This document shows positions 8,796-22,305 of a DNA stretch of 22,317 nt, piece by piece; positions within the stretch are counted from its first letter, which is position 1; each line of letters starts with the position of its first letter. The stretch spans positions 1 to 22,317 of the forward strand of contig MNUO01000070.1 in the NCBI GenBank assembly GCA_001871015.1, written 5' to 3'. The notes beneath the pieces are model-generated. The model was not told the DNA's origin. It worked only from the letters and a program-made list of their open reading frames with translations, and searched no databases. A program made the position numbers and the translations under genes. This DNA comes from Candidatus Desantisbacteria bacterium CG1_02_38_46. GTDB lineage: Bacteria; Desantisbacteria; UBA1551; UBA1559.

Positions 8796-8823
8796 TTGAC
8801 AAATCTTTAATTTTGTGTATAAT
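8796..8823 (+). promoter_or_regulatory. Sigma-70 promoter of the hisH-guaA-pyrG-purF operon
   Basis: TTGACA (8796-8801) and TATAAT (8818-8823) are separated by 16 bases. Transcription should start near 8829-8832, just at the base of the leader hairpin. Confidence 0.88.
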
Positions 8824-8829
8824 TAAAAC

Positions 8830-8847
8830 AAAAGCAACGGCGCTTTT
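8830..8847 (+). promoter_or_regulatory. Candidate ANTAR-binding hexaloop hairpin in the hisH leader
   Basis: AAAAGC (8830-8835) pairs perfectly with GCTTTT (8842-8847), closing the hexaloop AACGGC. The loop has A at position 1 and G at position 4, the pattern reported for ANTAR target hairpins. It overlaps the left arm of the terminator, so the two folds exclude each other. Only one such hairpin fits between the promoter and terminator; known ANTAR targets usually have two. Confidence 0.6.
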
Positions 8848-8877
8848 TCGATGGAGAAGAAGCGTCTTTTTTGTTTT
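8839..8877 (+). terminator. Intrinsic leader terminator before hisH
   Basis: GGCGCTTTTTC (8839-8849) and GAAGAAGCGTC (8856-8866) form an 11-bp stem with two G-U pairs and the six-base loop GATGGA, followed by TTTTTTGTTTT. It lies before the hisH start, so it should attenuate the operon. Confidence 0.85.
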
Positions 8878-8901
8878 AAGACACGCATTAAAGAGGATAT
8901 T

Positions 8902-9531
8902 GTGATTGTGGCTATAAATTATGGAATGGGAAATCTCTATAGCATAAGCAAGGCGCTGGAAAGAATGGGCGCAAAAGTAAAAGTAACCAACAACCCGCGC
9001 CTGATTGGCTCTGCAAATGCGATTGTGCTTCCAGGAGTCGGTGCTTTCAGAGAGGCAATGAAAAATCTTTCAAAATATGAAATTGTGCCTGTTATAAAAA
9101 AAGCAATTGAAGAAGGCAAACCATTCCTTGGTATATGCCTTGGAATGCAGTTATTGTTTAGTGAAAGCGAAGAAGGTAACTGCAAAGGGCTTGATATTAT
9201 AAAAGGAAAGGTCAGGCGTTTCTGTCGGACAGAGAAGATACCGCATATGGGTTGGAACCAGGTCAAATGCAAAAAAGAAATTCCAATCTTGAAAGGATTA
9301 CCTGACCCTTGCTGGATGTATTTTGCTCATTCGTATTACGTCACACCCTCGACCCAAAACAACAAAGTAATTGCTGCCAACACTGATTACGGAGTTGAAT
9401 TTGCTTCAATAATCTGGAAACAGAATGTATTTGGAACACAGTTTCATCCAGAAAAAAGCGGGAAGGATGGAGTGATGTTTTTAAAAAATTTTATTAAGAT
9501 AGCAGGAGAAAGATGCAGGAGACAGTTTTAA
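8902..9531 (+). CDS. hisH: Imidazole glycerol phosphate synthase glutaminase subunit HisH
   Basis: HisH releases ammonia from glutamine and channels it to HisF to make imidazole glycerol phosphate and AICAR in histidine synthesis. The protein is 209 residues, a single class I glutamine amidotransferase domain with the nucleophile Cys79 in GICLGMQ and His182/Glu184 in [14 protein letters not shown] is also typical of HisH. The GTG at 8902 is chosen because the homology begins at once ([13 protein letters not shown]) and AGAGG lies 5 bases upstream. An in-frame ATG at 8851 is inside the terminator loop and is not believable. No hisF or other his gene is near; it is grouped with other amidotransferases instead. 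It overlaps guaA by 19 bases. Confidence 0.93.
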
Positions 9532-11048
9532 TTTTGGATTTCGGTTCGCAGTATACACAGTTGATTGCCCGCAGAGTACGGGAACACAAGGTATTTTGTT
9601 GTGTCCTGCCTTACAACACAAGCTTGCAGAAAATCAAAGAAATCTCTCCAAAAGGCATTATCTTTACAGGTGGGCCTGCAAGCACATATGAAGGAAAAAT
9701 TAAACCTTGCCCAGAAATTTTTAACCTCAGAATTCCAATCTTAGGCATATGTTACGGGATGCAGGTTATAGCAGATATCCTGGGTGGAAAGGTCCGGAAG
9801 GCAAAAGCAGGAGAATATGGAAATACAGGAATTTCAGTATCAACAAAAACAGAATTATTCAGGGGTTTGCCCGGGGATTTTGTCTGCTGGATGAGTCACG
9901 GAGATTCTGTCTTAATGGTGCCGGATAGTTTTGTAAAAATTGCCTTCACCAAAAATACAGATGTTGCTGCAATGGTTGACAGAGAAAGAAATATCTGGGC
10001 AGTTCAATTTCATCCTGAAGTTGTCCATACACAATATGGAAAGAATATCTTTTACAATTTTCTTTATGAAATCTGCAGATGCGCTGGCAAATGGACAATG
10101 GAATCATTTATAAAACAATCAATTAAAAATATTAAATCGCAGATGGGTAATAGTAAGGTCGTCCTCGGATTGAGCGGCGGTGTGGACTCCTCTGTTTGTG
10201 CGATTTTGATTCATAAGGCAATTGGTAAAAATCTATTCTGCATCTTTGCGGACAACGGGTTATTGCGCAAAGACGAAGGAAAACGAGTGAAGGAAGTTTT
10301 CAAAAGACATTTCAAAATGAATCTGCGATATGTGGATGCAGGGAAGAGATTCCTAAAAAAACTTAAGGGTGTGACTGACCCGGAACTCAAGCGAAAGATT
10401 ATAGGGAATGAATTTGTCCGCGTTTTTGAAGAAGAAGCCAAAAAAATTGGGAAAGTGGAATTCCTTGCACAGGGAACATTATATCCTGATGTGATTGAAT
10501 CTTGCTCTGCCTTTGGTGGACCAAGCGCTCGTATCAAAACACATCACAATGTTGGGGGGCTTCCTGAGAAAATGAAGTTAAAATTGATTGAACCACTCAA
10601 GGATCTTTTCAAGGATGAAGTGAGGCAACTTGGTATGAAACTTGGAATGCCTGAAGAAATTGTGTGTCGCCAGCCATTTCCTGGACCAGGTCTTGCTGTG
10701 AGGATTATTGGAGAGGTGAACAAAGAAAGACTGGGCGTTCTGCGGGAAGTTGACAGGCGGGTTATTATAGAAATGAAGAAAGCAGGACTGTATCGCAATC
10801 TGTGGCAATCTTTTGCGGTCTTGCTTCCAATAAAAACTGTGGGTGTGATGGGAGACAAAAGGACATACGAGAATGTTGTGGCATTGCGAATAGTTACAAG
10901 CGAGGATGCAATGACTGCTGACTGGGCACGCCTTCCCTATGACTTACTTGCAAGACTTTCAAATCAGATTATAAATGAAGTGAAAGGTGTAAACCGCGTG
11001 GTTTATGATATTTCTTCAAAACCACCCAGTACAATTGAGTGGGAGTAA
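9513..11048 (+). CDS. guaA: GMP synthase (glutamine-hydrolysing)
   Basis: GuaA converts XMP to GMP with ATP and glutamine. The 511-residue protein has the complete layout: an N-terminal glutamine amidotransferase domain with Cys80 in GICYGMQ and His167/Glu169 in FHPEV, the ATP pyrophosphatase loop SGGVDS at residues 221-226, and the C-terminal dimerisation domain ending with KPPSTIEWE. The ATG lies inside the end of hisH with AGGAG just upstream. Its stop is 2 bp before the pyrG ATG, so the genes are co-translated. No unusual feature. Confidence 0.98.
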
Positions 11049-11050
11049 AA

Positions 11051-12628
11051 ATGGCTAAGTATATTTTTGTAACCGGTGGGGTTGTTTCGTCGCTGGGTAA
11101 GGGAATTACTGCTGCATCAATTGGATGCATACTGAAAAATTGCGGGCTGCGCGTAAATATATTGAAAATAGACCCCTACCTCAATGTGGACCCAGGAACA
11201 ATGAGCCCCTTTCAGCACGGAGAAGTCTTTGTGACCGATGACGGAGCTGAAACCGACTTGGACCTGGGCAACTACGAAAGATTCATGGATGTCAATTTGA
11301 CTCAGGACAACAATTTTACAACTGGCAGGGTCTACAACACAATTATAACAAAGGAAAGAAAAGGAGAATTTCTTGGAGGAACAGTTCAGGTAATTCCGCA
11401 TGTAACTGATGAAATCAAATCAAGAATCAAAAAAATTGCAGATAATTACGATGTGGTCATTACAGAAATTGGGGGGACAACCGGGGATATAGAGGGATTG
11501 CCTTTCCTCGAAGCAATCAGGCAATTCAGATTGGATTTAGGATGGGACAATGTTTGTTATATTCATGTAACGCTTGTACCATATATTCGTGCTGCTGAAG
11601 AGATGAAAACAAAACCAACACAGCAGAGCGTGGCTAAACTTAGAGAGATTGGTATAGAACCGCAGATTATAATATGTCGCACAGAGAGACCTCTTACAGA
11701 AAGTATGAGGAAAAAGATTGCCCTGTTTTGCAACGTTCAGGAAAAAACGGTTCTGGAAGAAAGAGATGTGTCCTTCAGCATTTACGAAGTTCCTGTAATG
11801 CTCAAAAAACAGGGTCTGGATAAGTTGATTCTGGAAATGTTAAATTTAAAAGGGAAGTCCAGCAATTTAAGCAACTGGGGAAAATTATTAAATAAAATGA
11901 AAAAATGCAGGAAAAAAATTACGGTTGCTGTTGCCGGTAAATACACAATCCTCAAAGACGCCTATAAGAGTATCTGGGAAGCACTTACACATGCAGGTGT
12001 GGCAAATGGTGTGAGCACAGAAATAAAATATGTGGATGTAGAAAATAAAAATTTGAAGAATGAATTAAAAAATGCTGATGCAATTCTTGTTCCGGGCGGT
12101 TTCGGTGAAAGGGGCATTGAGGGAAAAATTGAAGTGGTGCGTTATGCACGTGAAAATAAAATTCCATTTCTTGGATTGTGTCTGGGAATGCAGTGTGCCG
12201 TGATTGAATTCGCAAGAAATGTATGCGGGATGAAAGGAGCAAATAGCATCGAGTTCGATGCGAAATCAAAATATCCTGTAATTGATATGATGCTCGAGCA
12301 GAAAAAATTAACACAGAAGGGCGCAACCATGCGCCTGGGAGAATACCCCTGCGAAATCAAAAATGGTTCCCTCGCCCACCGTGCATATAAAAAGAATCTG
12401 GTTTTCGAAAGACATCGTCACAGATATGAATTGAATAATGAATTCAGAGATATTTTGGAATCGAAGGGATTAAAAATAACAGGAGAATGCAGGGGTAAGA
12501 AACTTGCAGAAATTGTGGAAATTAATAATCATCCCTGGTTTATTGCTGTCCAGTTTCACCCGGAATTCAAATCCAGACCAAACAAACCCCACCCTTTATT
12601 CGTGAATTTTATTAAAGCAGCCAAATGA
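11051..12628 (+). CDS. pyrG: CTP synthase
   Basis: PyrG aminates UTP to CTP using ATP and glutamine. The protein is 525 residues, with the synthetase domain first ([16 protein letters not shown] at the start, then [15 protein letters not shown]) and a C-terminal glutamine amidotransferase domain with the nucleophile Cys377 in GLCLGMQ and FHPEFKSRP near the end. The start at 11051 fits the family and has GGGAG 5 bases upstream; an in-frame GTG at 11039 would add four residues inside guaA. Its last bases form an ATGA overlap with purF. Confidence 0.98.
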
Positions 12629-14019
12629 TAAAACACTCGTGTGGAATTTTTGGGGTTTTTGGCCATAAAGATGCTGCTGGACTCACATATTTAGGATTGT
12701 ATGCACTCCAGCATCGGGGTCAGGAAAGTGCTGGAATAGTTGTCTCAGATGGCAAAAACATTAGACACTGGCGCGGAATGGGCCTTGTAAGTGAAGTTTT
12801 TACAAGTGGAACCCTGAATACCCTCGCTGGAAAGTTCGCAATAGGACATGTGCGATATTCAACCACAGGTTCTTCAACTATAAAAAACACTCAGCCGTTC
12901 ATAGTTGAATATTTCGGCAATTCACTGGCAGTAGCACACAACGGAAATATAGTCAATGCCATACAATTGCACAGAAAACTGGAATCCTCAGGTTCTATTT
13001 TCCAATCCACTATGGACAGTGAATTGCTCGTCCATCTTATTGCCAAATCCAAAGGAGATTTTAAAGAAAAAGTTGCTAATTCCCTGACGAAATTAAAAGG
13101 TGCGTTCTCCATATTGGTTTTAGCTGAAAACCAATTCGTGGCTGCGAGAGATCCAGGCGGATTTCGTCCGTTATGTCTTGGAAAAATTGACGGGGCATAT
13201 GTAGTTGCATCTGAGACCTGCGCCCTTGACCTCATCCATGCAGACTATTTGCGTGAAATAGAACCGGGAGAGATTGTATTTTTTGATGAGAATGGACTGC
13301 ATTCAATTAAACCATTCACGAACAATAAACACTCTTTTTGTATCTTTGAATACATCTATTTTGCCCGTCCTGACAGTAATATATTTGGAGGAAATGTTTC
13401 TATTGCAAGAGAAAATCTGGGAAAGCGTCTCGCAAAAGAACATCCAGCAAAAGCAGATATTGTAATTCCTGTACCTGATTCAGGAACTTATGCAGCACTG
13501 GGTTTTGCAAGGGAGTCCGGAATTCCATTTGAGATGGGACTGGTAAGAAATCATTATGTCGGCAGAACCTTCATTCAGCCGTCACAGGAAATCAGGGACC
13601 TCGGGGTTAAAATAAAACTTAATCCGGTCAGCGAAGTATTAAAAGGAAAAAGCGTAGTAGTAATTGAAGATTCTATAGTGAGAGGAACAACCAGCTGCAT
13701 AAGGATTAAAGCACTGCGTGAAGCAGGTGCAAAAAAAGTACATATGCGCGTGAGTTGCCCTCCACTGCGGTATCCCTGTTTCTATGGAATTGACTTTCCC
13801 ACCTCGGAAGAACTCATAGCTTCCTCTCTCGGCGTAAAAGAAATAGGTGAACGTATCGGCGTTGATAGTCTTGGTTATTTAAGCATTGGTGGAATGCTTG
13901 ACTCAATGCCTATTCCAGGAGGCAAATTCTGCACCGCCTGCTTTACAGGAAGATACTCTGTTTCTGTAAAAGAAAAAATTTCCAAATACAAATTTGAAAA
14001 AGGAGGGAAACTACGGTGA
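12625..14019 (+). CDS. purF: Amidophosphoribosyltransferase
   Basis: PurF makes 5-phosphoribosylamine from PRPP and glutamine, the first committed step of purine synthesis. It has 464 residues. The N-terminal nucleophile Cys6 follows a five-residue propeptide, as in enzymes that cleave MxxxS before CGIFG. The PRPP-binding loop is [14 protein letters not shown]. Conserved cysteines in [22 protein letters not shown] and CTACF suggest the Bacillus type with a [4Fe-4S] cluster and propeptide. It overlaps pyrG by ATGA and the following GAF-ANTAR gene by GTGA. Confidence 0.97.
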
Positions 14020-14711
14020 GCAAAAAGACTTCTTATGCCAGGCAAATTGAAGCATTGTCAAAGATAAGCAAGGCAATTTCCTCAAAGTTATATTTAGAGG
14101 ACATTTTACGTCTTATAGTTACAGTTACAGCAGAAGTGATGCACTCAAGGATTTGTTCTTTAATGCTATTGAATGAAAAAAATGAACTGGTTCTTAAAGC
14201 AACCCAGGCTGTGAGTGAAGAGTATAAAAAGAAACCTCCCCTAAAACTCGGGGAAGGCATTGCTGGGAAAGTAGCAAAGGAAGAAAAGCCAATAATTGTT
14301 CCTGATGTAAAAGAAGATCCCGGATATCTACATCAGGGAATTGCAAGAAAAGAAAGACTCTGTTCACTGCTCAGCGTACCCCTAAGTGTAAAGGGAGGGG
14401 TTATCGGAGTGCTAAATCTTTATACTTCTACACCGCACAAATTCACAAAGGGTGAAATAGAAACTCTAACCACTGTGGCAAATCAGGCAGCAGTTGTTAT
14501 TGAGAATGCCAGGTTACTGGTACAGACCAGGATAATACAGGAAGAGCTGGAAACAAGAAAATTGGTTGAGCGCGCAAAGGGAATACTGATGAAACAGGGG
14601 TTATCAGAAGAAGAGGCATTCCGCAAAATTCAAAAGAAAAGTATGGACCTGCGCAAACCAATGAAGGAAATTGCAGAAGCAATAATACTGACAAGCGAAA
14701 TAGAAAAATAA
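14016..14711 (+). CDS. GAF-ANTAR RNA-binding antiterminator 1
   Basis: This 231-residue regulator has a GAF sensor domain at about residues 20-165 (LGEGIAGKVAKEEKPIIVPDV, SVPLSVKGGVIGVLNLY) followed by an ANTAR domain at about 176-231 (RKLVERAKGILM, GLSEEEAFRKIQ, LRKPMKEIAEAII). ANTAR domains bind paired hexaloop hairpins in leader RNA and block terminator formation, as known for NasR and EutV; the GAF domain probably senses a small ligand. The GTG start overlaps the purF stop, with AGGAGG 9 bases upstream. It is the last gene of the hisH operon, whose own leader carries a candidate target hairpin. Compared with its paralogue at 17228 it lacks one residue in ILMKQGLS. The stop TAA is the first part of a repeat element. 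Confidence 0.93.
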   Translation: MSKKTSYARQIEALSKISKAISSKLYLEDILRLIVTVTAEVMHSRICSLMLLNEKNELVLKATQAVSEEYKKKPPLKLGEGIAGKVAKEEKPIIVPDVKEDPGYLHQGIARKERLCSLLSVPLSVKGGVIGVLNLYTSTPHKFTKGEIETLTTVANQAAVVIENARLLVQTRIIQEELETRKLVERAKGILMKQGLSEEEAFRKIQKKSMDLRKPMKEIAEAIILTSEIEK

Positions 14712-14840
14712 GAACCTGTCGCCTCGGGCGACAGAACCTTGTTTCTCGTGGGACACGTCGATAAAATGTCAAAATAAGAACCTGTCGCCTCGGGCGACAG
14801 AACCTTGTTTCTCGTGGGACACGTCGATAAAATGTCAAAA
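14709..14840 (+). repeat. Two tandem copies of a 66-bp two-hairpin element
   Basis: Two nearly identical 66-bp units, the second starting at about 14775. Each has ATAAGAACCT, the hairpin GTCGCC/GGCGAC, AGAACCTTGTTTCT, the hairpin CGTG/CACG and ACGTCG, ending in ATAAAATGTCAAAAT. A diverged copy is at 4042-4109. The first unit begins exactly at the stop codon of the GAF-ANTAR gene. Confidence 0.88.
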
Positions 14841-14864
14841 TAGTTCCTGTAGCAAAATTTCAGA

Positions 14865-14912
14865 ACAAAAAAATGCCGTGGACTTGACAAATTGATAAAA
14901 ATGTGCTATAAT
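14865..14912 (+). promoter_or_regulatory. Sigma-70 promoter of the glutamate synthase operon with upstream conserved box
   Basis: TTGACA (14884-14889) and TATAAT (14907-14912) are 17 bases apart. Just upstream, ACAAAAAAATGCCGTGG (14865-14881) is repeated almost exactly before the promoter at 22193, so it is likely a shared operator, an UP-like element or the edge of a duplicated cassette. This stretch is part of the 482-bp gene-free region 14712-15193, which holds the repeats, this promoter and the leader structures listed here. Confidence 0.85.
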
Positions 14913-14918
14913 GGATTT

Positions 14919-14953
14919 TGACATAATGAAGTGTTGTAAGGCGAAGCAGCCTT
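14919..14953 (+). promoter_or_regulatory. Tandem hexaloop hairpins, candidate ANTAR target in the glutamate synthase leader
   Basis: Hairpin 1 is TGACAT (14919-14924) with GTGTTG (14931-14936), closing the loop AATGAA, which has A1 and G4; several pairs are G-U. Hairpin 2 is AAGGC (14938-14942) with GCCTT (14949-14953), closing the six-base loop GAAGCA, which has G4 but G rather than A at position 1. The right arm of hairpin 2 is the left arm of the following terminator, so hairpin 2 acts as an antiterminator. This is the arrangement of ANTAR-controlled leaders. Confidence 0.68.
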
Positions 14954-14990
14954 CTTTCCCGAGGTAGGGAGAGAAGGCTTTTTTTGTTTT
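14949..14990 (+). terminator. Intrinsic leader terminator before glutamate synthase
   Basis: GCCTTCTTTCCC (14949-14960) and GGGAGAGAAGGC (14967-14978) make a 12-bp stem with one wobble and the hexaloop GAGGTA, followed by TTTTTTTGTTTT. It lies 200 bp before the start of the next gene and directly after the promoter. Confidence 0.9.
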
Positions 14991-15018
14991 TTAAGAACAC
15001 AAGATTGGTTGCTCCAAA

Positions 15019-15118
15019 CGCAAGGTAGCGATTACTTTGCGACGAAGATGTCTTCCGTAGAGAATGACCTCTACAGTCATGAACTATTCAATTCATGGCA
15101 GGAAGGCTTTTTTTGTTT
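15019..15118 (+). promoter_or_regulatory. Second structured leader segment with a hexaloop hairpin and U-tract
   Basis: CGCAAGGTA/TACTTTGCG (15019-15027/15033-15041) forms a 9-bp stem with one G-U pair. GTAGAG/CTCTAC (15057-15062/15069-15074) closes the hexaloop AATGAC, again A1 and G4. CATGAA/TTCATG (15078-15083/15092-15097) follows, and GGAAGG (15101-15106) can pair with TCTTCC (15051-15056) to enclose these last two. A GGCTTTTTTTG tract follows, the same as in the first terminator. It may be a second attenuator or a single long-range fold. Confidence 0.45.
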
Positions 15119-15193
15119 TAGAGTGTCACAATAGTACCACTCTTATCTCTTTCAGAATCTGTGTAATCTATTTTTAACAAAAAGGAGGGCAAG

Positions 15194-16762
15194 ATGTCAT
15201 TCAGTAGAGCAAATGCAAGTCCAGCAACTGGAACAAGGAATCGCACTGCCTACAACCCTGGTTCAGGAATGTGTGTCACCTGTCTTGATGGGTGCGTAGG
15301 TCTGTGTGAAATTGGTAAATCCGCAATCAGGGGAAGAGAAGTTCTTTATCCCCAGCCTTTTGGTAAAATGACTGCTGGTTCGGAAAAGGATTATCCGGTA
15401 GATTTATCCCACTTCAACATTCAGGGAACCTGCGTGGGAGCAGTGGGTTTACCTGCGGACTCGGATAAGGCAATTTTCCCAGCAGTAGATGTTTCAACTG
15501 AAGTCGGTTCAAAAGGAAGTATTAAATTGAAAGTCCCCTACTTCACTGCTGCGGTTGGTTCCACAGACATTGCCAGACTTCATTGGGAATCGATTGCCAT
15601 CGGGTCAGCAATTTGCGGAACAATAGCTGTGATTGGAGAGAATGTTTGTGGCGTTGACCCCCAGAGTGAAATTAAAAAAGGGAGAGTTGTAAAATCTCCT
15701 GAGTTAGAAAGGCGCGTAAAAATCTACAAGAATTGGTACAAGGGATATGGGACACTTGCGGTGCAGATGAATGTGGAAGACACGCGCCTCGGTGTAGCAG
15801 AGTATGCCATTGAGAAACTCGGTGTTGAAACCTTAGAGTTGAAATGGGGGCAGGGTGCAAAGGACATTGGCGGAGAAATTAAATTGCCCAGTCTCGAGGG
15901 AGCTCTGGAACTGAAGAAAAAAGGTTACATTGTATATCCTGACCCTGAAGACCCTGTAGCACAGAAGGCATTCAAAGATGGAGATTTTAAGGAATTTGAG
16001 AGACACTCTCGACTGGGGATGGTAGATGAAGAAAGATTCTACAAGGAAGTGGAGCGGGCAAGGAAACTGGGAGCAAAATATGTCACGCTGAAAACCGGTG
16101 CTTATCGCCCCGCGGACCTGGCAAGGGCTGTGAAATTTGCCTCCAATGCTCGAATTGACCTGCTGACAGTTGATGGTTCAGGTGGTGGCACAGGAATGAG
16201 TCCCTGGCGAATGATGAATGAATGGGGTATTCCAACAGTGCAATTGGAGTGTCTGCTCTATCAATTCCTTAAGAAACTTGATGAAAAAGGTGCGTACATT
16301 CCACCCTGTGCTATGGCTGGCGGATTTTCTCTTGAGGACCATGTGTTCAAGGCATTTGCTTTGGGTGCACCTTACATTAAAGCGGTCTGCATAGGCAGGG
16401 CAACAATAGCTGCAGCAATGGTTGGAAACACTGTCGGAGAAATGGTAAAGAAAGGGAAAGTTCCACCAGAGTTTCAAAAATACGGTAAAACTCTAGACCA
16501 GGTTTTCTTCGGTGCAGCAAAGTTGAAGGAAAAATATGGCAAGGATTTTGAGAAAATGACTACTGGTGCCGTTGGAATGTACACCTACTACGAGCGTCTC
16601 ACCACCGGGCTGCAGCAGTTGATGGCTGGCGCAAGAAAATTTGCCCTAAAACATATCTCCAGAGACGATATAGTGGCATTGACTCGTGAAGCATCTGATA
16701 TTTCAGGTATTCCATTTGTAATGGAGTCTGACTGGAAGGAAGTAGAGAAAATTTTAAAATGA
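15194..16762 (+). CDS. Stand-alone FMN-binding glutamate synthase subunit (GltB central-domain family)
   Basis: This 522-residue protein is the FMN/synthase domain of glutamate synthase as a separate polypeptide, the kind seen in archaea and some anaerobes. It lacks the glutamine amidotransferase domain of GltB, so ammonia must come from a partner or free. The N-terminus has CVTCLDGCVGLC at residues 27-38, a cysteine pattern suited to a metal or Fe-S site. The FMN/phosphate region includes TVDGSGGGTGMSP and CAMAGGFSLEDHVFKAFALG. AGGAGG lies 5 bases before the ATG, and the gene is preceded by a 270-base attenuated leader. It overlaps the nucleotidyltransferase gene by ATGA. Reaction: 2-oxoglutarate plus ammonia and reductant to glutamate, inferred from the family. 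Confidence 0.88.
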   Translation: MSFSRANASPATGTRNRTAYNPGSGMCVTCLDGCVGLCEIGKSAIRGREVLYPQPFGKMTAGSEKDYPVDLSHFNIQGTCVGAVGLPADSDKAIFPAVDVSTEVGSKGSIKLKVPYFTAAVGSTDIARLHWESIAIGSAICGTIAVIGENVCGVDPQSEIKKGRVVKSPELERRVKIYKNWYKGYGTLAVQMNVEDTRLGVAEYAIEKLGVETLELKWGQGAKDIGGEIKLPSLEGALELKKKGYIVYPDPEDPVAQKAFKDGDFKEFERHSRLGMVDEERFYKEVERARKLGAKYVTLKTGAYRPADLARAVKFASNARIDLLTVDGSGGGTGMSPWRMMNEWGIPTVQLECLLYQFLKKLDEKGAYIPPCAMAGGFSLEDHVFKAFALGAPYIKAVCIGRATIAAAMVGNTVGEMVKKGKVPPEFQKYGKTLDQVFFGAAKLKEKYGKDFEKMTTGAVGMYTYYERLTTGLQQLMAGARKFALKHISRDDIVALTREASDISGIPFVMESDWKEVEKILK

Positions 16763-17214
16763 AAGCAAGTATTTTAATAAAGGAGGCTCTTCAGTTCTGC
16801 CAGGAAAAAGCAAGCTGGAGGGTCTCCGGAATATCGGATTTGCGTCGAGGAGATAAGTGGACTCACAGCACATTCCGCTATGGCCTGGCTCGCCAGATTT
16901 CCAATCATCTGCTTAATAACTACCGTGAAATTAAAGCAGTTTATATTTTCGGCAGTACACTGGAGGACAGGGCAGGTTCCACATCAGATGTTGATCTAAT
17001 CCTTGTGGTTCAGAAAAAGAACGAACTCCTTCTGCACTACATAAGGAAATTAAAAGCAGAAGTTTTGCGGGCATACAAAAAGTTGGCAGGAAATGGCACT
17101 GCCGGATTAACAGACCTGCTGGATGTAAACATCGTTGACGATGAAGAACTAAAACAGAAAAAGGGATGTGCATCGCTGATTGATTCTATTTACACACCTG
17201 CTATCAAAATTTAG
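16759..17214 (+). CDS. Small nucleotidyltransferase-fold protein in the glutamate synthase operon
   Basis: The 151-residue protein has the polymerase-beta/MNT nucleotidyltransferase signature: GSTLEDRAGSTSDVDLILVV at about residues 66-85 (GS, then D-x-D) and a later aspartate in LLDVNIVDD that could be the third metal ligand. Such proteins transfer AMP, UMP or similar groups to proteins, antibiotics or other targets. An N-terminal tryptophan/arginine-rich helix region precedes it. It overlaps the glutamate synthase gene by ATGA and is followed 13 bp later by a GAF-ANTAR gene, so a role in modifying a nitrogen-metabolism protein is possible but only inferred. No HEPN partner of a typical MNT-HEPN pair is seen. 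Confidence 0.8.
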   Translation: MKASILIKEALQFCQEKASWRVSGISDLRRGDKWTHSTFRYGLARQISNHLLNNYREIKAVYIFGSTLEDRAGSTSDVDLILVVQKKNELLLHYIRKLKAEVLRAYKKLAGNGTAGLTDLLDVNIVDDEELKQKKGCASLIDSIYTPAIKI

Positions 17215-17227
17215 TTGGAGGGGGGCG

Positions 17228-17923
17228 ATGAAAACACTCTCATCTGGAAAACAGATTGAGGCACTTTCCAAAATTGGCAAGGCAATTACATCATACACAT
17301 ACCTGGATGATGTGCTGAATTTTATTGTCTCAATTACGGCTGAGATTGTTGATTCAAAGATATGCTCTTTATTACTTCTGAATGAAAAAAAAGAACTTGT
17401 CATTAGAACAACCCAATCGGTGAGTGAAAGTTACAGAAGGAAAGACCCTATTAAACTTGGTGAGGGGATTGCAGGTAAGGTAGCAAAAGAAAATAAACCC
17501 ATCACAGTACTCGATGTCAAGGAGGACCTAAGATATATCAACCGTGAGATTGCTGAAATGGAAGGGCTCTGTTCATTGCTCAGCGTACCCTTGAGTATTA
17601 AGGGCAAAGTAATTGGAGTGCTCAATTGTTATACGGGTTCCCCGCACAATTTTACCGAAAAAGAAATAAATCTACTTACAACTATTGCAAATCAGTCTGC
17701 TGTTGTTATAGAAAATGCACAATTAATGCTCAAAACCCGGGAAATTCAGGAAGAACTGGAGACAAGGAAAATAGTAGAACGTGCTAAGGGAATACTGATG
17801 AGGATGCAAGGGCTAAGTGAAGAAGAGGCGTTCCGACGAATCCAGAAGAAAAGTATGAATATGCGTAAGCCAATGAAGGAAATTGCAGAAGCAATAATAC
17901 TGACGGAAGAATTAGGGAAATAG
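17228..17923 (+). CDS. GAF-ANTAR RNA-binding antiterminator 2
   Basis: This is a paralogue of the regulator at 14016, the same length (231 residues) and largely identical, especially in the ANTAR part. GAF occupies about residues 20-165 (LGEGIAGKVAKENKPITVLDV, SVPLSIKGKVIGVLNCY) and ANTAR about 176-231 (RKIVERAKGILM, GLSEEEAFRRIQ, MRKPMKEIAEAII). The ATG at 17228 is preferred to an upstream in-frame start at 17180, because GGAGGGGGG directly precedes it and the sequence matches its paralogue from there. It ends at the base before the carA ATG. Placed inside the operon that begins with a hexaloop leader, it is a likely autoregulatory antiterminator; the GAF ligand is unknown. Confidence 0.93.
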   Translation: MKTLSSGKQIEALSKIGKAITSYTYLDDVLNFIVSITAEIVDSKICSLLLLNEKKELVIRTTQSVSESYRRKDPIKLGEGIAGKVAKENKPITVLDVKEDLRYINREIAEMEGLCSLLSVPLSIKGKVIGVLNCYTGSPHNFTEKEINLLTTIANQSAVVIENAQLMLKTREIQEELETRKIVERAKGILMRMQGLSEEEAFRRIQKKSMNMRKPMKEIAEAIILTEELGK

Positions 17924-19081
17924 ATGAAAACGATTCTCGCATTAGAGGATGGAACTGTCTTTAAAGGAAAACCATTCGGTGCAACCGGTGAAAGATTTGG
18001 TGAGATTGTATTTAATACAAGTATGACCGGATATCAGGAAATTCTCACCGACCCTTCCTACAAGGGACAGATTGTCTGTATGACTTATCCTCTTATTGGA
18101 AATTATGGAGTCAGTCCTGAAGATTTTGAATCTCGTAAACCCTTTGTAGAAGGATTTGTTGTAAAGGAATGCAGTCGTATTTTTTCAAACTGGCGGGGCA
18201 AAATAAGTCTTGATGAATTTTTAAAAGAACATGACATCCTGGGTATTGAAGGAATAGACACACGAGAACTAACCTGTCATATAAGAAGTGCTGGAGCAAT
18301 GAAATCAGTTATTTCAACTGAAGACCTGGACGTGGACAGTCTCATATCAAAAGTGAAAGCATCCCATGGATTGATTGGTAGGGATCTGGTTAAAGAAGTG
18401 ACCTGCGAAAAAACATATAAATGGGAAGCAAATATCTCAGTAGTTCAGTCGCTCAATAGTTTAAAAACTAACCTTACACATAACACCTTACACCCTACAC
18501 GTTATAAGGTAGTTGTTCTGGATTGTGGGACCAAGCACAATATCCTAAACAGTCTCATCACAGTGGGCTGCGATATTACTGCTGTCCCTGCAAGAACAAG
18601 TGCAAAAGAAATTTTAAAGTATGAGCCAGATGGAATTCTCTTGTCCAACGGCCCTGGCGACCCCGCTGCTGTTCCGTATGTAGTGGATACTGTAAAAGAT
18701 TTAATACGATCGGCGATGGACGATGGACTACCGATGGCAATATTCGGCATTTGCCTTGGTCATCAGATACTGGGATTAGCACTTGGTGGGAAAACATATA
18801 AATTGAAGTTTGGCCATCACGGTGGAAATCATCCTGTTAAGGATTTGAGAACCGGAAGGGTTGCAATCACTGCACAGAATCACGGTTTTTGCGTGGACAT
18901 TGAATCACTAAATAAAGATGAGATAGAAATAACACACATAAACCTTTATGACAACACCCTTGAAGGAATGCGACATAAAAAATTACCAATCTTCTCGGTT
19001 CAATACCATCCCGAATCTTCTCCCGGCCCTCATGATGCGGGATATCTATTTGAGGAATTTGTGCAGATGATGGGAAAATAA
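17924..19081 (+). CDS. carA: Carbamoyl-phosphate synthase small subunit
   Basis: CarA hydrolyses glutamine and passes ammonia to CarB for carbamoyl phosphate, used in pyrimidine and arginine synthesis. The protein has 385 residues: the N-terminal CarA-specific domain (GEIVFNTSMTGYQEILTDPSY) and a C-terminal glutamine amidotransferase domain with Cys277 in FGICLGHQ and YHPESSPGPHD at the end. Between the domains, about residues 173-193 are an extra linker encoded partly by a period-7 tandem array, absent from typical CarA. FGHHGGNHPV replaces the usual FGHRGGNHPV. The gene starts directly after the GAF-ANTAR stop. Confidence 0.97.
   Translation: MKTILALEDGTVFKGKPFGATGERFGEIVFNTSMTGYQEILTDPSYKGQIVCMTYPLIGNYGVSPEDFESRKPFVEGFVVKECSRIFSNWRGKISLDEFLKEHDILGIEGIDTRELTCHIRSAGAMKSVISTEDLDVDSLISKVKASHGLIGRDLVKEVTCEKTYKWEANISVVQSLNSLKTNLTHNTLHPTRYKVVVLDCGTKHNILNSLITVGCDITAVPARTSAKEILKYEPDGILLSNGPGDPAAVPYVVDTVKDLIRSAMDDGLPMAIFGICLGHQILGLALGGKTYKLKFGHHGGNHPVKDLRTGRVAITAQNHGFCVDIESLNKDEIEITHINLYDNTLEGMRHKKLPIFSVQYHPESSPGPHDAGYLFEEFVQMMGK
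18473..18500 (+). repeat. Four 7-bp tandem units inside carA
   Basis: The units CTTACAC, ATAACAC, CTTACAC and CCTACAC lie end to end in the interdomain linker. The encoded threonine/asparagine-rich stretch has no counterpart in ordinary CarA. Confidence 0.75.
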
Positions 19082-19087
19082 AAAATT

Positions 19088-20797
19088 ATGCCTAAGCGCA
19101 CTGACATTCACAAAATCTTGATTATCGGCTCAGGACCAATTGTTATAAGCCAGGCCTGTGAATTTGATTATTCCGGAGCGCAGGCATGCAAAGCACTGCG
19201 AAACGAAGGTTTTGAAGTTGTTCTTATTAACTCCAATCCCGCCACAATTATGACTGACCCTGAAATGGCTCAGCATACATATATTGAACCAATCACGCCT
19301 CAGTTTGTTGAAAAAATCATTGTCAAGGAAAAACCCGACGCCCTGCTTCCAACCCTCGGAGGGCAAACTGCGCTCAACGTTGCCGTAAAAGCTGCCAAAT
19401 CAGGAATTCTTGAAAAATACAATGTTAAAATGATAGGTGCAAACCTGCAGGCAATTAAAAAAGCCGAAGACAGGGGATTGTTCAAAAACGCAATGTTAAA
19501 GATAGGATTGGATTTACCCAGAAGCAAGCAGGCATATAATACAAAGGAATCGCTTTCCATTGCTCGGGAAATAGGATTCCCCCTGATAATACGGCCGAGC
19601 TTTACTCTCGGTGGGACAGGCGGAGGAATAGCCTATAATATCGAAGAATTTGAAACAATTGCATCCAAGGGACTGGAAGAAAGTATGGTCAGTGAAATAT
19701 TAATTGAAGAATCCGTAATTGGATGGAAAGAATTTGAGCTAGAAGTGATGCGTGACATCAAAGATAATGTGGTCATTATTTGTTCAATTGAAAACTTTGA
19801 CTCTATGGGAATTCATACCGGAGACAGCATCACAGTTGCGCCAATCCAAACATTAACGGATAAGGAATATCAGAAAATGCGCGATGCCGCAATTGCGGTA
19901 ATCCGTGAAATAGGCGTGGAAACAGGCGGTTCAAATATCCAGTTTGCAGTAAATCCAGAAAATGGCAGAATGGTTATTATTGAGATGAATCCGCGAGTCT
20001 CGCGCAGTTCAGCACTTGCCAGCAAGGCAACCGGGTTTCCAATAGCAAAAATAGCTGCAAAACTCGCTGTAGGATGTACACTTGATGAAATTCCCAATGA
20101 TATAACAAAAGAAACTCCTGCTTCATTTGAACCAGTGCTTGACTATTGTGTGGTAAAAATTCCGCGTTTTACATTTGAAAAATTCCCAGGTTCAGACCCT
20201 ACCCTTACGATTTCTATGAAATCTGTAGGTGAAACCATGGCAATTGGCAGAACATTCAAAGAAGCACTGCAAAAAGGATTGCGCTCGCTGGAAATCGGAG
20301 CACAGGGACTGGATGATAAATTTATGCCTGTTCAATTAAAAATGCAAAATGGAAAATTAAAAATTGGCGAACAGACTCTGGAAGAAATAAAAGAAAGATT
20401 GAGGGTGCCGAATGCAAAAAGAGTTTTTTATATAAAATATGCTTTTCAGGCAGGTTTAGGTATTGAAGAAATTCATCATCTTACAAAGATTGACCCTTGG
20501 TTCTTGGACAATATAAAACAGATTGTGGAACTGGAAGGAGAAATTAGAAAAGAGTCAGAGAATCATAGAATCAGAGAGTCGGAGAGTCAAAAACCGAAAA
20601 TTCCAGCTGAATTATTAAGAAAGGCCAAGGAATATGGTTTCAGCGACCTTCAGATTGCCCGCTTACTCGGTTGCGACGAACTCGCCGTAAGGAACCTGCG
20701 CAAAAAATACAGAATTGAACCCACTTTTAAACTCGTTGATACCTGCGCTGCCGAATTTGAGGCAAAAACACCTTATTATTATTCTACATACGAGTAG
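19088..20797 (+). CDS. carB: Carbamoyl-phosphate synthase large subunit, N-terminal half
   Basis: This 569-residue protein corresponds to the first half of CarB only: the carboxy-phosphate ATP-grasp domain ([58 protein letters not shown]) plus the oligomerisation domain, ending in [20 protein letters not shown] at a TAG stop. Full CarB is about 1,070 residues. Separate carB1 and carB2 genes are known in Aquifex and Methanocaldococcus, so this may be a natural split, with the carbamate-phosphorylating half elsewhere; no trace of that half follows in any frame I read. Two short-period repeats (20339-20366 and 20549-20588) lengthen loops of the oligomerisation domain. It follows carA by 6 bp. 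Confidence 0.93.
20339..20366 (+). repeat. Four 7-bp tandem units inside carB, first array
   Basis: The units AAAATGC, AAAATGG, AAAATTA and AAAATTG are end to end and encode the stretch around KMQNGKLKI, at a place where typical CarB is several residues shorter. Confidence 0.72.
20549..20588 (+). repeat. Five 8-bp tandem units inside carB, second array
   Basis: The units AAAGAGTC, AGAGAATC, ATAGAATC, AGAGAGTC and GGAGAGTC (consensus AGAGARTC) are end to end. They encode the polar stretch [13 protein letters not shown] in a loop of the oligomerisation domain. Confidence 0.78.
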
Positions 20798-21826: not shown

Positions 21827-21835
21827 ATTGTAGTG

Positions 21836-21859
21836 GCAGAGATTGCTCTGCAGATTTTT
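21836..21859 (+). terminator. Possible terminator after murI
   Basis: GCAGAG (21836-21841) and CTCTGC (21846-21851) form a 6-bp stem with a 4-base loop, followed by AGATTTTT. The stem is short, so this is uncertain. Confidence 0.4.
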
Positions 21860-22174
21860 CGGCAGCTCATCGACTGCGGAAAAACAGAAAAAAGAATTCC
21901 TCCCACCTATGTTCCTTCAAGAAATACAATTTTTTTAAGCATTGCCCTTTCATATGCTGAAGCAATCAGAGCCCGGGCAATTTTCATCGGAGCAAATGCA
22001 ATTGACTTCAGCGGTTATCCTGACTGCAGACCGAATTATTATACCGCTTTCAAAAAAATAGTACAACTTGGAACAAAGTGCGGAGTGGAAGGGAATCCGA
22101 TTTCAATTCTCGCGCCATTATTAAAAAAGACAAAGGCACAAATTATAGAATTGGGAAGAAAACTTGGGAGTTCC

Positions 22175-22220
22175 ACAAAAAATGCCGTGGGCTTGACAAA
22201 ATTAATTTTTATGTTATACT
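22175..22220 (+). promoter_or_regulatory. Third promoter of the same type, with the shared upstream box
   Basis: ACAAAAAATGCCGTGG (22175-22190) repeats the box at 14865. It is followed by TTGACA (22193-22198), 16 bases and TATACT (22215-22220). It reads out of the window to the right. Confidence 0.8.
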
Positions 22221-22252
22221 ATAAAAAATAATGGTTAAGATAAGGGAATAAC

Positions 22253-22305
22253 ACAATACAAGGGAGTGTTGTAAAAAGACGATGGTGTCCGAATTCCCGG
22301 AACAC
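22253..22305 (+). promoter_or_regulatory. Third candidate ANTAR leader (edge of window)
   Basis: ACAATAC (22253-22259) pairs with GTGTTGT (22266-22272), closing the hexaloop AAGGGA (A1, G4). A weak second hairpin, GAC/GTC (22278-22280/22287-22289), closes the hexaloop GATGGT. Its right arm overlaps a larger stem, GTGTCCG/CGGAACAC (22285-22291/22298-22305). The hairpin-1 3' arm and linker (AGTGTTGTAA) are the same as in the 14.9-kb leader. Any U-tract and the controlled gene lie beyond the edge. Confidence 0.55.

What the first reader, a model, noticed from the sequence alone, without database searches (positions are those of the whole stretch)
8796..20797. A glutamine-amidotransferase regulon controlled by ANTAR antitermination
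Two operons gather hisH, guaA, pyrG, purF, a glutamate synthase subunit, carA and half of carB. These belong to histidine, GMP, CTP, purine, glutamate and carbamoyl-phosphate pathways, and what they share is glutamine or glutamate chemistry. Each operon encodes a GAF-ANTAR protein and each begins with a promoter, an A1/G4 hexaloop hairpin and an overlapping intrinsic terminator. Known ANTAR targets (NasR, EutV) control nitrate or ethanolamine use and, in some bacteria, nitrogen assimilation. Control of a whole set of biosynthetic amidotransferases by paired self-encoded antiterminators would be a global glutamine-budget switch. The sequence shows genes and hairpins; the regulatory link is inferred.
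Basis: partly seen in the sequence, partly recalled or inferred. Interest (0 to 1): 0.9.

Follow-up and report, generated by a model that had tools for sequence, protein, structure and literature searches.

The report
RNA-switch regulon of glutamine-using enzymes
In a barely known bacterial phylum, most enzymes that take nitrogen from glutamine to make nucleotides, histidine and carbamoyl phosphate sit in two operons that each carry an ANTAR antiterminator gene and start with a conserved ANTAR-type RNA switch; similar groupings recur in unrelated phyla, which suggests that one RNA-level control covers both nitrogen uptake and nitrogen spending.

Summary
The window (a Desantisbacteria-like contig) has hisH-guaA-pyrG-purF-ANTAR1 and gltB2-NTase-ANTAR2-carA-carB(N-half). 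Each operon starts with a near-perfect sigma-70 promoter, an A1/G4-type hexaloop hairpin and an overlapping intrinsic terminator. A third ANTAR leader at the contig end precedes gdhA, which lies on contig C129.

Independent checks also pass. The hisH leader is almost identical in a relative of another family; unrelated spacers are not conserved. In 85 loci around GAF-ANTAR genes, dual hexaloop plus terminator is specific to A1/G4 (30 dual hits, at most 7 for any other base pair). A covariance model found unseen leaders before nadE in the relative and before an ANTAR-gdhA-carA-carB½-glmS-purF-pyrG operon elsewhere. Twenty ANTAR-less genomes gave nothing below E=0.4. Most RNA-contact residues of EutV are conserved.

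ANTAR control of nitrogen genes is known (Ramesh 2012). I found no report of extension to purine, CTP, histidine, NAD and amino-sugar amidotransferases. That the switch reads glutamine is inference (closest solved GAF fold: PtsP, a family with glutamine-binding members). The hisH leader departs from the canonical layout: no separate upstream hairpin, and its second hexaloop is the terminator's own loop. Nothing was tested at the bench.

The parts
8796..8823 (+). sigma-70-type promoter of the hisH operon (TTGACA-N16-TATAAT)
   Evidence: 12 of 12 consensus bases; conserved in G001
8830..8847 (+). antiterminator hairpin AAAAGC[AACGGC]GCTTTT, A1/G4 hexaloop
   Evidence: sequence; folds alone; near-identical in G001
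8839..8872 (+). intrinsic terminator with apical hexaloop [GATGGA] ([AATGGA] in G001) and U6 run; its 5' arm overlaps the antiterminator
8902..9531 (+). hisH (likely true start about 8902)
   Evidence: TIGR01855 236 bits starting at residue 19 of the longer ORF
9513..11048 (+). guaA, GMP synthase
11039..12628 (+). pyrG, CTP synthase
12625..14019 (+). purF, amidophosphoribosyltransferase
14016..14711 (+). GAF-ANTAR protein 1
   Evidence: AlphaFold2 model pLDDT 90; most RNA-contact residues conserved
14884..14912 (+). sigma-70-type promoter of the gltB2 operon
   Evidence: 12 of 12 consensus bases
14920..14935 (+). hexaloop hairpin P1 GACAT[AATGAA]GTGTT
   Evidence: R1 match, a training sequence
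14938..14953 (+). hexaloop hairpin P2 AAGGC[GAAGCA]GCCTT (G001: [AGAGCT])
14948..14985 (+). intrinsic terminator overlapping P2, U7 run
   Evidence: conserved in G001
15050..15114 (+). second conserved structured element (three-way junction with [AATGAC] hexaloop, then U-run); role unknown
   Evidence: z -4.2; conserved in G001; one copy per genome
15194..16762 (+). gltB2, FMN-domain glutamate synthase-like protein
   Evidence: PF01645
16759..17214 (+). nucleotidyltransferase-fold protein
   Evidence: PF18765; also beside gltB2 in G001 and L030
17228..17923 (+). GAF-ANTAR protein 2
17924..19081 (+). carA
19088..20797 (+). stand-alone N-terminal half of carB
   Evidence: conserved in G001 and L051
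22193..22317 (+). third ANTAR leader: promoter 22193-22220, P1 ACAATAC[AAGGGA]GTGTTGT 22253-22272, P2 GAC[GATGGT]GTC 22278-22289; precedes gdhA on contig C129
   Evidence: R1 match, a training sequence; gdhA begins 39 bp into C129; conserved with the G001 gdhA leader

Best explanation
This is an ANTAR transcription-antitermination regulon. RNA polymerase starts at strong constitutive-type promoters and by default stops at an intrinsic terminator in each leader. A GAF-ANTAR dimer, made from the same operons, binds the hexaloop hairpin(s) in the nascent leader and stabilises the one that pairs with the terminator's 5' arm, so transcription continues into genes whose products use glutamine or glutamate nitrogen (hisH, guaA, pyrG, purF; gltB2, carA, carB-N; gdhA). 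Shown by sequence and comparison: genes, leaders, mutually exclusive folds, conservation, conserved RNA-contact residues, recurrence with amidotransferase genes in other lineages. Inferred: RNA binding, antitermination, autoregulation, that the GAF domain senses glutamine or a related nitrogen signal, and the direction of the response.
For: hisH leader core nearly identical (46 of 47 columns) between G000 and G001, gltB2 and gdhA leaders also conserved, control spacers not. A1/G4 specificity of dual hexaloop-terminator hits over 15 other base combinations and over shuffles. Model R1 hits outside its training set: nadE leader in G001 at E=0.022, leader of the L051 amidotransferase operon, extra Aerophobetes leaders, a nitrite-assimilation leader next to an ANTAR gene in G052 at E=0.0065; 20 ANTAR-less genomes gave nothing below 0.4. 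In the held loci all non-training hits lie on the operon strand. EutV contacts R142, K143, K149 and M172 are 40/40 and position 164 is Tyr or Phe in 40/40. Four of five PF00117 amidotransferase genes in the assembly are in this window. 23 of 62 GAF-ANTAR loci have a glutamine amidotransferase within six genes on the same strand; 12% of immediate neighbours against 1-5% farther out. GAF closest to PtsP GAF, a family with glutamine-binding members (PMC4848567).
Against: No biochemical or expression data. In this genome three hexaloops start with G (gltB2 P2, hisH terminator loop, third-leader P2), and the gltB2 P1 loop in G001 is GGTTAT, breaking the rule. The hisH leader has no separate P1. EutV R177 and R168 equivalents differ (P and Q). 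A PtsP-like GAF fold does not prove a glutamine ligand. Genome-wide RNA searches scored only 150 candidates per genome, so the regulon list is incomplete.
Confidence: 0.82

Rival explanations
1. It is an ordinary ANTAR nitrogen-assimilation regulon of the kind described in 2012; the nucleotide and histidine amidotransferases are carried along by operon fusion, and there is no dedicated glutamine-budget control.
For: Nitrogen genes (glnA, gltB2, gdhA, amtB, glnK) are the commoner neighbours (34 of 62 loci); ANTAR leaders upstream of such genes are published (PMC3369931).
Against: hisH and nadE have their own leaders, and in G001 carA also has its own; amidotransferase sets recur in different combinations with GAF-ANTAR in L030, L051, L065, L067.
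Confidence: 0.4
2. The leaders are plain attenuators or terminators unrelated to the ANTAR proteins.
For: Terminator hairpins are common; the hisH leader lacks the canonical P1.
Against: A1/G4 specificity, conservation, hits in ANTAR genomes but not in 20 ANTAR-less ones.
Confidence: 0.08
3. A ligand-binding RNA, such as the second conserved element at 15050-15114, is the main sensor of the gltB2 operon, with ANTAR secondary.
For: Stable, conserved three-way junction followed by a U-run.
Against: Present only in the gltB2 leader; no Rfam match at gathering score.
Confidence: 0.1

Closest known systems
EutV/EutW system of Enterococcus faecalis (ANTAR with dual hexaloop leaders)
   Same: hexaloop hairpin overlapping a terminator; most RNA-contact residues conserved
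   Different: GAF instead of a receiver domain; no partner kinase gene seen in the window; biosynthetic instead of catabolic targets
ANTAR nitrogen regulons found by covariance search (Ramesh et al. 2012, PMC3369931), e.g. glutamate synthase genes in Desulfotomaculum reducens
   Same: several ANTAR leaders in one genome upstream of glutamate and other nitrogen genes
   Different: here also hisH-guaA-pyrG-purF, carA and nadE; the paper's text lists synthases for glutamate, glutamine and arginine but not these (its Table S2 could not be read)
NasR of Klebsiella (nitrate-responsive ANTAR)
   Same: one-component sensor fused to ANTAR controlling a nitrogen operon
   Different: NIT sensor domain and nitrate signal instead of GAF and unknown signal
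PtsP (EI-Ntr) GAF domain
   Same: closest solved GAF fold (3trc, 3ci6); glutamine acts through this domain in alphaproteobacteria (PMC4848567)
   Different: output is a phosphotransferase, not an RNA-binding domain

Membership tests
ANTAR antiterminator protein | ANTAR domain (PF03861) above curated cut-off | tested here: met
   71.7 and 77.4 bits, cut-off 27.3
ANTAR antiterminator protein | RNA-contact residues of EutV | tested here: met
   R142, K143, E146, K149, E160, M172, R175 kept, K147 to R, Y164 to F, N173 to D; R168 and R177 not kept in ANTAR1
ANTAR antiterminator protein | binds hexaloop RNA and prevents termination | not testable with these tools
   needs in vitro assays
ANTAR dual-hexaloop leader (gltB2 and third leader) | two hexaloop hairpins, stems of at least 3 bp | tested here: met
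   both are training sequences of R1
ANTAR dual-hexaloop leader (gltB2 and third leader) | A at position 1 and G at position 4 of each loop | tested here: inconclusive
   P1 loops AATGAA and AAGGGA conform; P2 loops GAAGCA and GATGGT have G at position 1 (G001 equivalents start with A); G4 present in all four
ANTAR dual-hexaloop leader (gltB2 and third leader) | intrinsic terminator overlapping P2 | tested here: inconclusive
   met for gltB2; the third leader is cut by the contig end, C129 begins at its U-run
ANTAR dual-hexaloop leader (hisH) | separate P1 hairpin upstream of P2 | tested here: not met
   only one hexaloop hairpin precedes the terminator; the second hexaloop is the terminator loop
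ANTAR dual-hexaloop leader (hisH) | A1/G4 hexaloop hairpin overlapping a terminator | tested here: met
   AACGGC loop, conserved in G001

The most novel reading that the evidence does not exclude
Several uncultured bacterial phyla use GAF-ANTAR proteins as direct glutamine sensors that set, by antitermination, the expression of the cell's biosynthetic glutamine amidotransferases (purine, CTP, histidine, NAD, amino sugar, carbamoyl phosphate) together with the nitrogen assimilation genes that supply them, and the hisH leader shows a compact variant in which the terminator's own loop is the second ANTAR site.
Probability: 0.3. Interest if true: 0.85.

Novelty: new variant of a known kind. Interest (0 to 1): 0.66.

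Why it matters
ANTAR antitermination has been linked to using or assimilating nitrogen. Here it also covers the enzymes that spend glutamine on nucleotides, histidine, NAD and carbamoyl phosphate, so supply and demand would be set by one RNA-level switch, in lineages without cultured members. In 2012 no GAF-ANTAR protein had been characterised (PMC3369931) and I found no later report; this gives concrete leader RNAs, proteins and a candidate ligand to test.

Tried and rejected
Rfam at gathering threshold: no match; the weak PyrG_leader match to the gltB2 terminator (23 bits, gathering 65) was rejected as a terminator look-alike. R1 hits below about 20 bits in G000, G001, G062, G028 and G012 mostly fall in unrelated genes and were rejected as noise. 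Covariation counts on A3 are not used as evidence because those leaders were chosen by pairing. A glutamine-dependent nadE in G000 was not found (assembly 88% complete). My first label 'GAFx' for one neighbour cluster was wrong: it is GlnA. Literature searches found no report of this gene set under ANTAR control.
Full report
What is there. The window is the whole contig C49 of a 1.73 Mb assembly. The nearest held relative, G001 (same order, another family), is Candidatus Desantisbacteria CG1_02_49_89. Operon 1 is hisH-guaA-pyrG-purF-GAF-ANTAR1, operon 2 is gltB2-nucleotidyltransferase-GAF-ANTAR2-carA-carB(N-half). The contig ends inside a third leader; gdhA and then a full carB begin contig C129, the order expected from G001, where gdhA with its own leader and a full carB follow the carB half. 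Of five PF00117 amidotransferase genes in the assembly, four are here; the fifth, on C109, follows a trpE-like gene.

Leaders. Operons 1 and 2 start with promoters that match the sigma-70 consensus in 12 of 12 bases. The hisH leader has AAAAGC[AACGGC]GCTTTT overlapping a terminator with apical loop GATGGA; the gltB2 leader has P1 [AATGAA], P2 [GAAGCA] and an overlapping terminator. Folding of truncated and full RNAs shows the two states. Between G000 and G001 the hisH leader core is nearly identical and the gltB2 and gdhA leaders are conserved, whereas the other spacer comparisons score no better or little better than shuffled sequence. G001 adds leaders at carA and nadE.

Is it more than chance? 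Over the window, G001 loci and about 80 GAF-ANTAR loci from other genomes, a mechanical scan for hexaloop hairpins overlapping terminators with a second hexaloop upstream gave 30 hits for A1/G4 and 1-7 for each of the other 15 base pairs; dinucleotide shuffles gave 4.7 against 57 at score 40 or more. A covariance model of P1-P2 (R1), trained on 13 leaders, found leaders it had not seen: nadE in G001, the ANTAR-gdhA-carA-carB(half)-glmS-purF-pyrG operon of L051, further Aerophobetes sites and a nitrite-reductase leader beside an ANTAR gene in G052. Twenty ANTAR-less genomes gave nothing below E=0.4. Limits: the genome tool scores only 150 candidates per genome, and R1 cannot see the hisH layout.

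Gene content elsewhere. GAF-ANTAR relatives lie in Omnitrophota, Aerophobetes, Elusimicrobia, Latescibacterota, Deltaproteobacteria and others by record title. Neighbours include nadE (12 of 62 loci), glnA, gltB2, gdhA, amtB, glnK, and purF, pyrG, purL, glmS, carA, hisH. Examples: L030 ANTAR-gdhA-gltB2-NTase-hisH-hisF-purF; L065 purL-purF-pyrG-glnA-ANTAR; L072 gdhA-purL-glnA-ANTAR; L067 ANTAR-pyrG-ANTAR. 23 of 62 loci have an amidotransferase within six genes on the same strand, and the share falls from 12% of immediate neighbours to 1-5% farther away. Some MAG records may be mis-binned, so taxon names are as given in the titles. Some 'nadE' labels may be the ammonia-dependent form, since blastp labels rest on the shared synthetase domain (e.g. 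the 244-residue protein of L030).

Proteins. The ANTAR domain aligns to EutV, NasR and Rv1626. Most EutV residues that bind RNA (PMC8934654) are kept: R142, K143, K149, M172 in 40 of 40 relatives, aromatic at 164 in 40 of 40; R177 and R168 are not kept in ANTAR1. An AlphaFold2 model (mean pLDDT 90) shows GAF, a long helix and the ANTAR helices; best solved matches are PtsP GAF domains. Glutamine binding to the PtsP GAF is reported in Sinorhizobium and its effect in Caulobacter (PMC4848567). That this GAF binds glutamine is inference.

Mechanism. Most likely the GAF-ANTAR dimer, on a nitrogen signal, stabilises the hexaloop antiterminator and lets polymerase pass. For hisH the antiterminator directly takes the terminator's 5' arm and the second hexaloop is the terminator loop; this compact layout is consistent with the single-hexaloop minimum proposed in PMC8934654, which argues that the dimer contacts each hexaloop in turn, but whether it works that way is open. 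Direction of control (on at high or low glutamine) is not known.

Known or new. ANTAR nitrogen regulons with glutamate synthase, glutamine and arginine synthesis genes are published (PMC3369931); I therefore call this a new variant of a known kind. New as far as I could find: control of nucleotide, histidine, NAD and amino-sugar amidotransferases, the phyla, the compact leader, and two paralogous GAF-ANTARs (70% identical), one per operon. The supplementary tables of that paper were not readable here, so overlap cannot be excluded.

Noticed in passing
window 15050-15114: Second conserved structured element in the gltB2 leader (three-way junction with an [AATGAC] hexaloop, followed by a U-run), one copy per genome, no Rfam family.
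   Followed up: partly
window 14872-14888 and 22181-22197; G001 carA, gdhA and nadE leaders: Shared sequence just upstream of the -35 box of ANTAR leaders: AATGCCGTGGRCTTGAC in G000, YCGACGCTTGAC in G001; possibly a second regulator site or a promoter extension.
   Followed up: partly
window 19088-20797; L015; L051: A stand-alone N-terminal half of CarB is conserved; in G000 and G001 it exists alongside a full-length CarB (49% identical to its N-half in G000).
   Followed up: partly
window 16759-17214; L015; L030: Small nucleotidyltransferase-fold protein conserved directly after gltB2 in three lineages; could modify a nitrogen-metabolism protein.
   Followed up: partly
window 21833-22231: QueC-like ORF matches only positions 83-179 of the 210-position family model, with murI ending just before it; looks like a truncated gene.
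   Followed up: partly
window 14710-14842: Two near-identical 66-bp tandem copies with a GC-rich palindrome downstream of ANTAR1.
   Followed up: no
L069, L075: DUF1846 proteins sit beside GAF-ANTAR genes in several Omnitrophota loci, hinting at a nitrogen-related role for this family.
   Followed up: no
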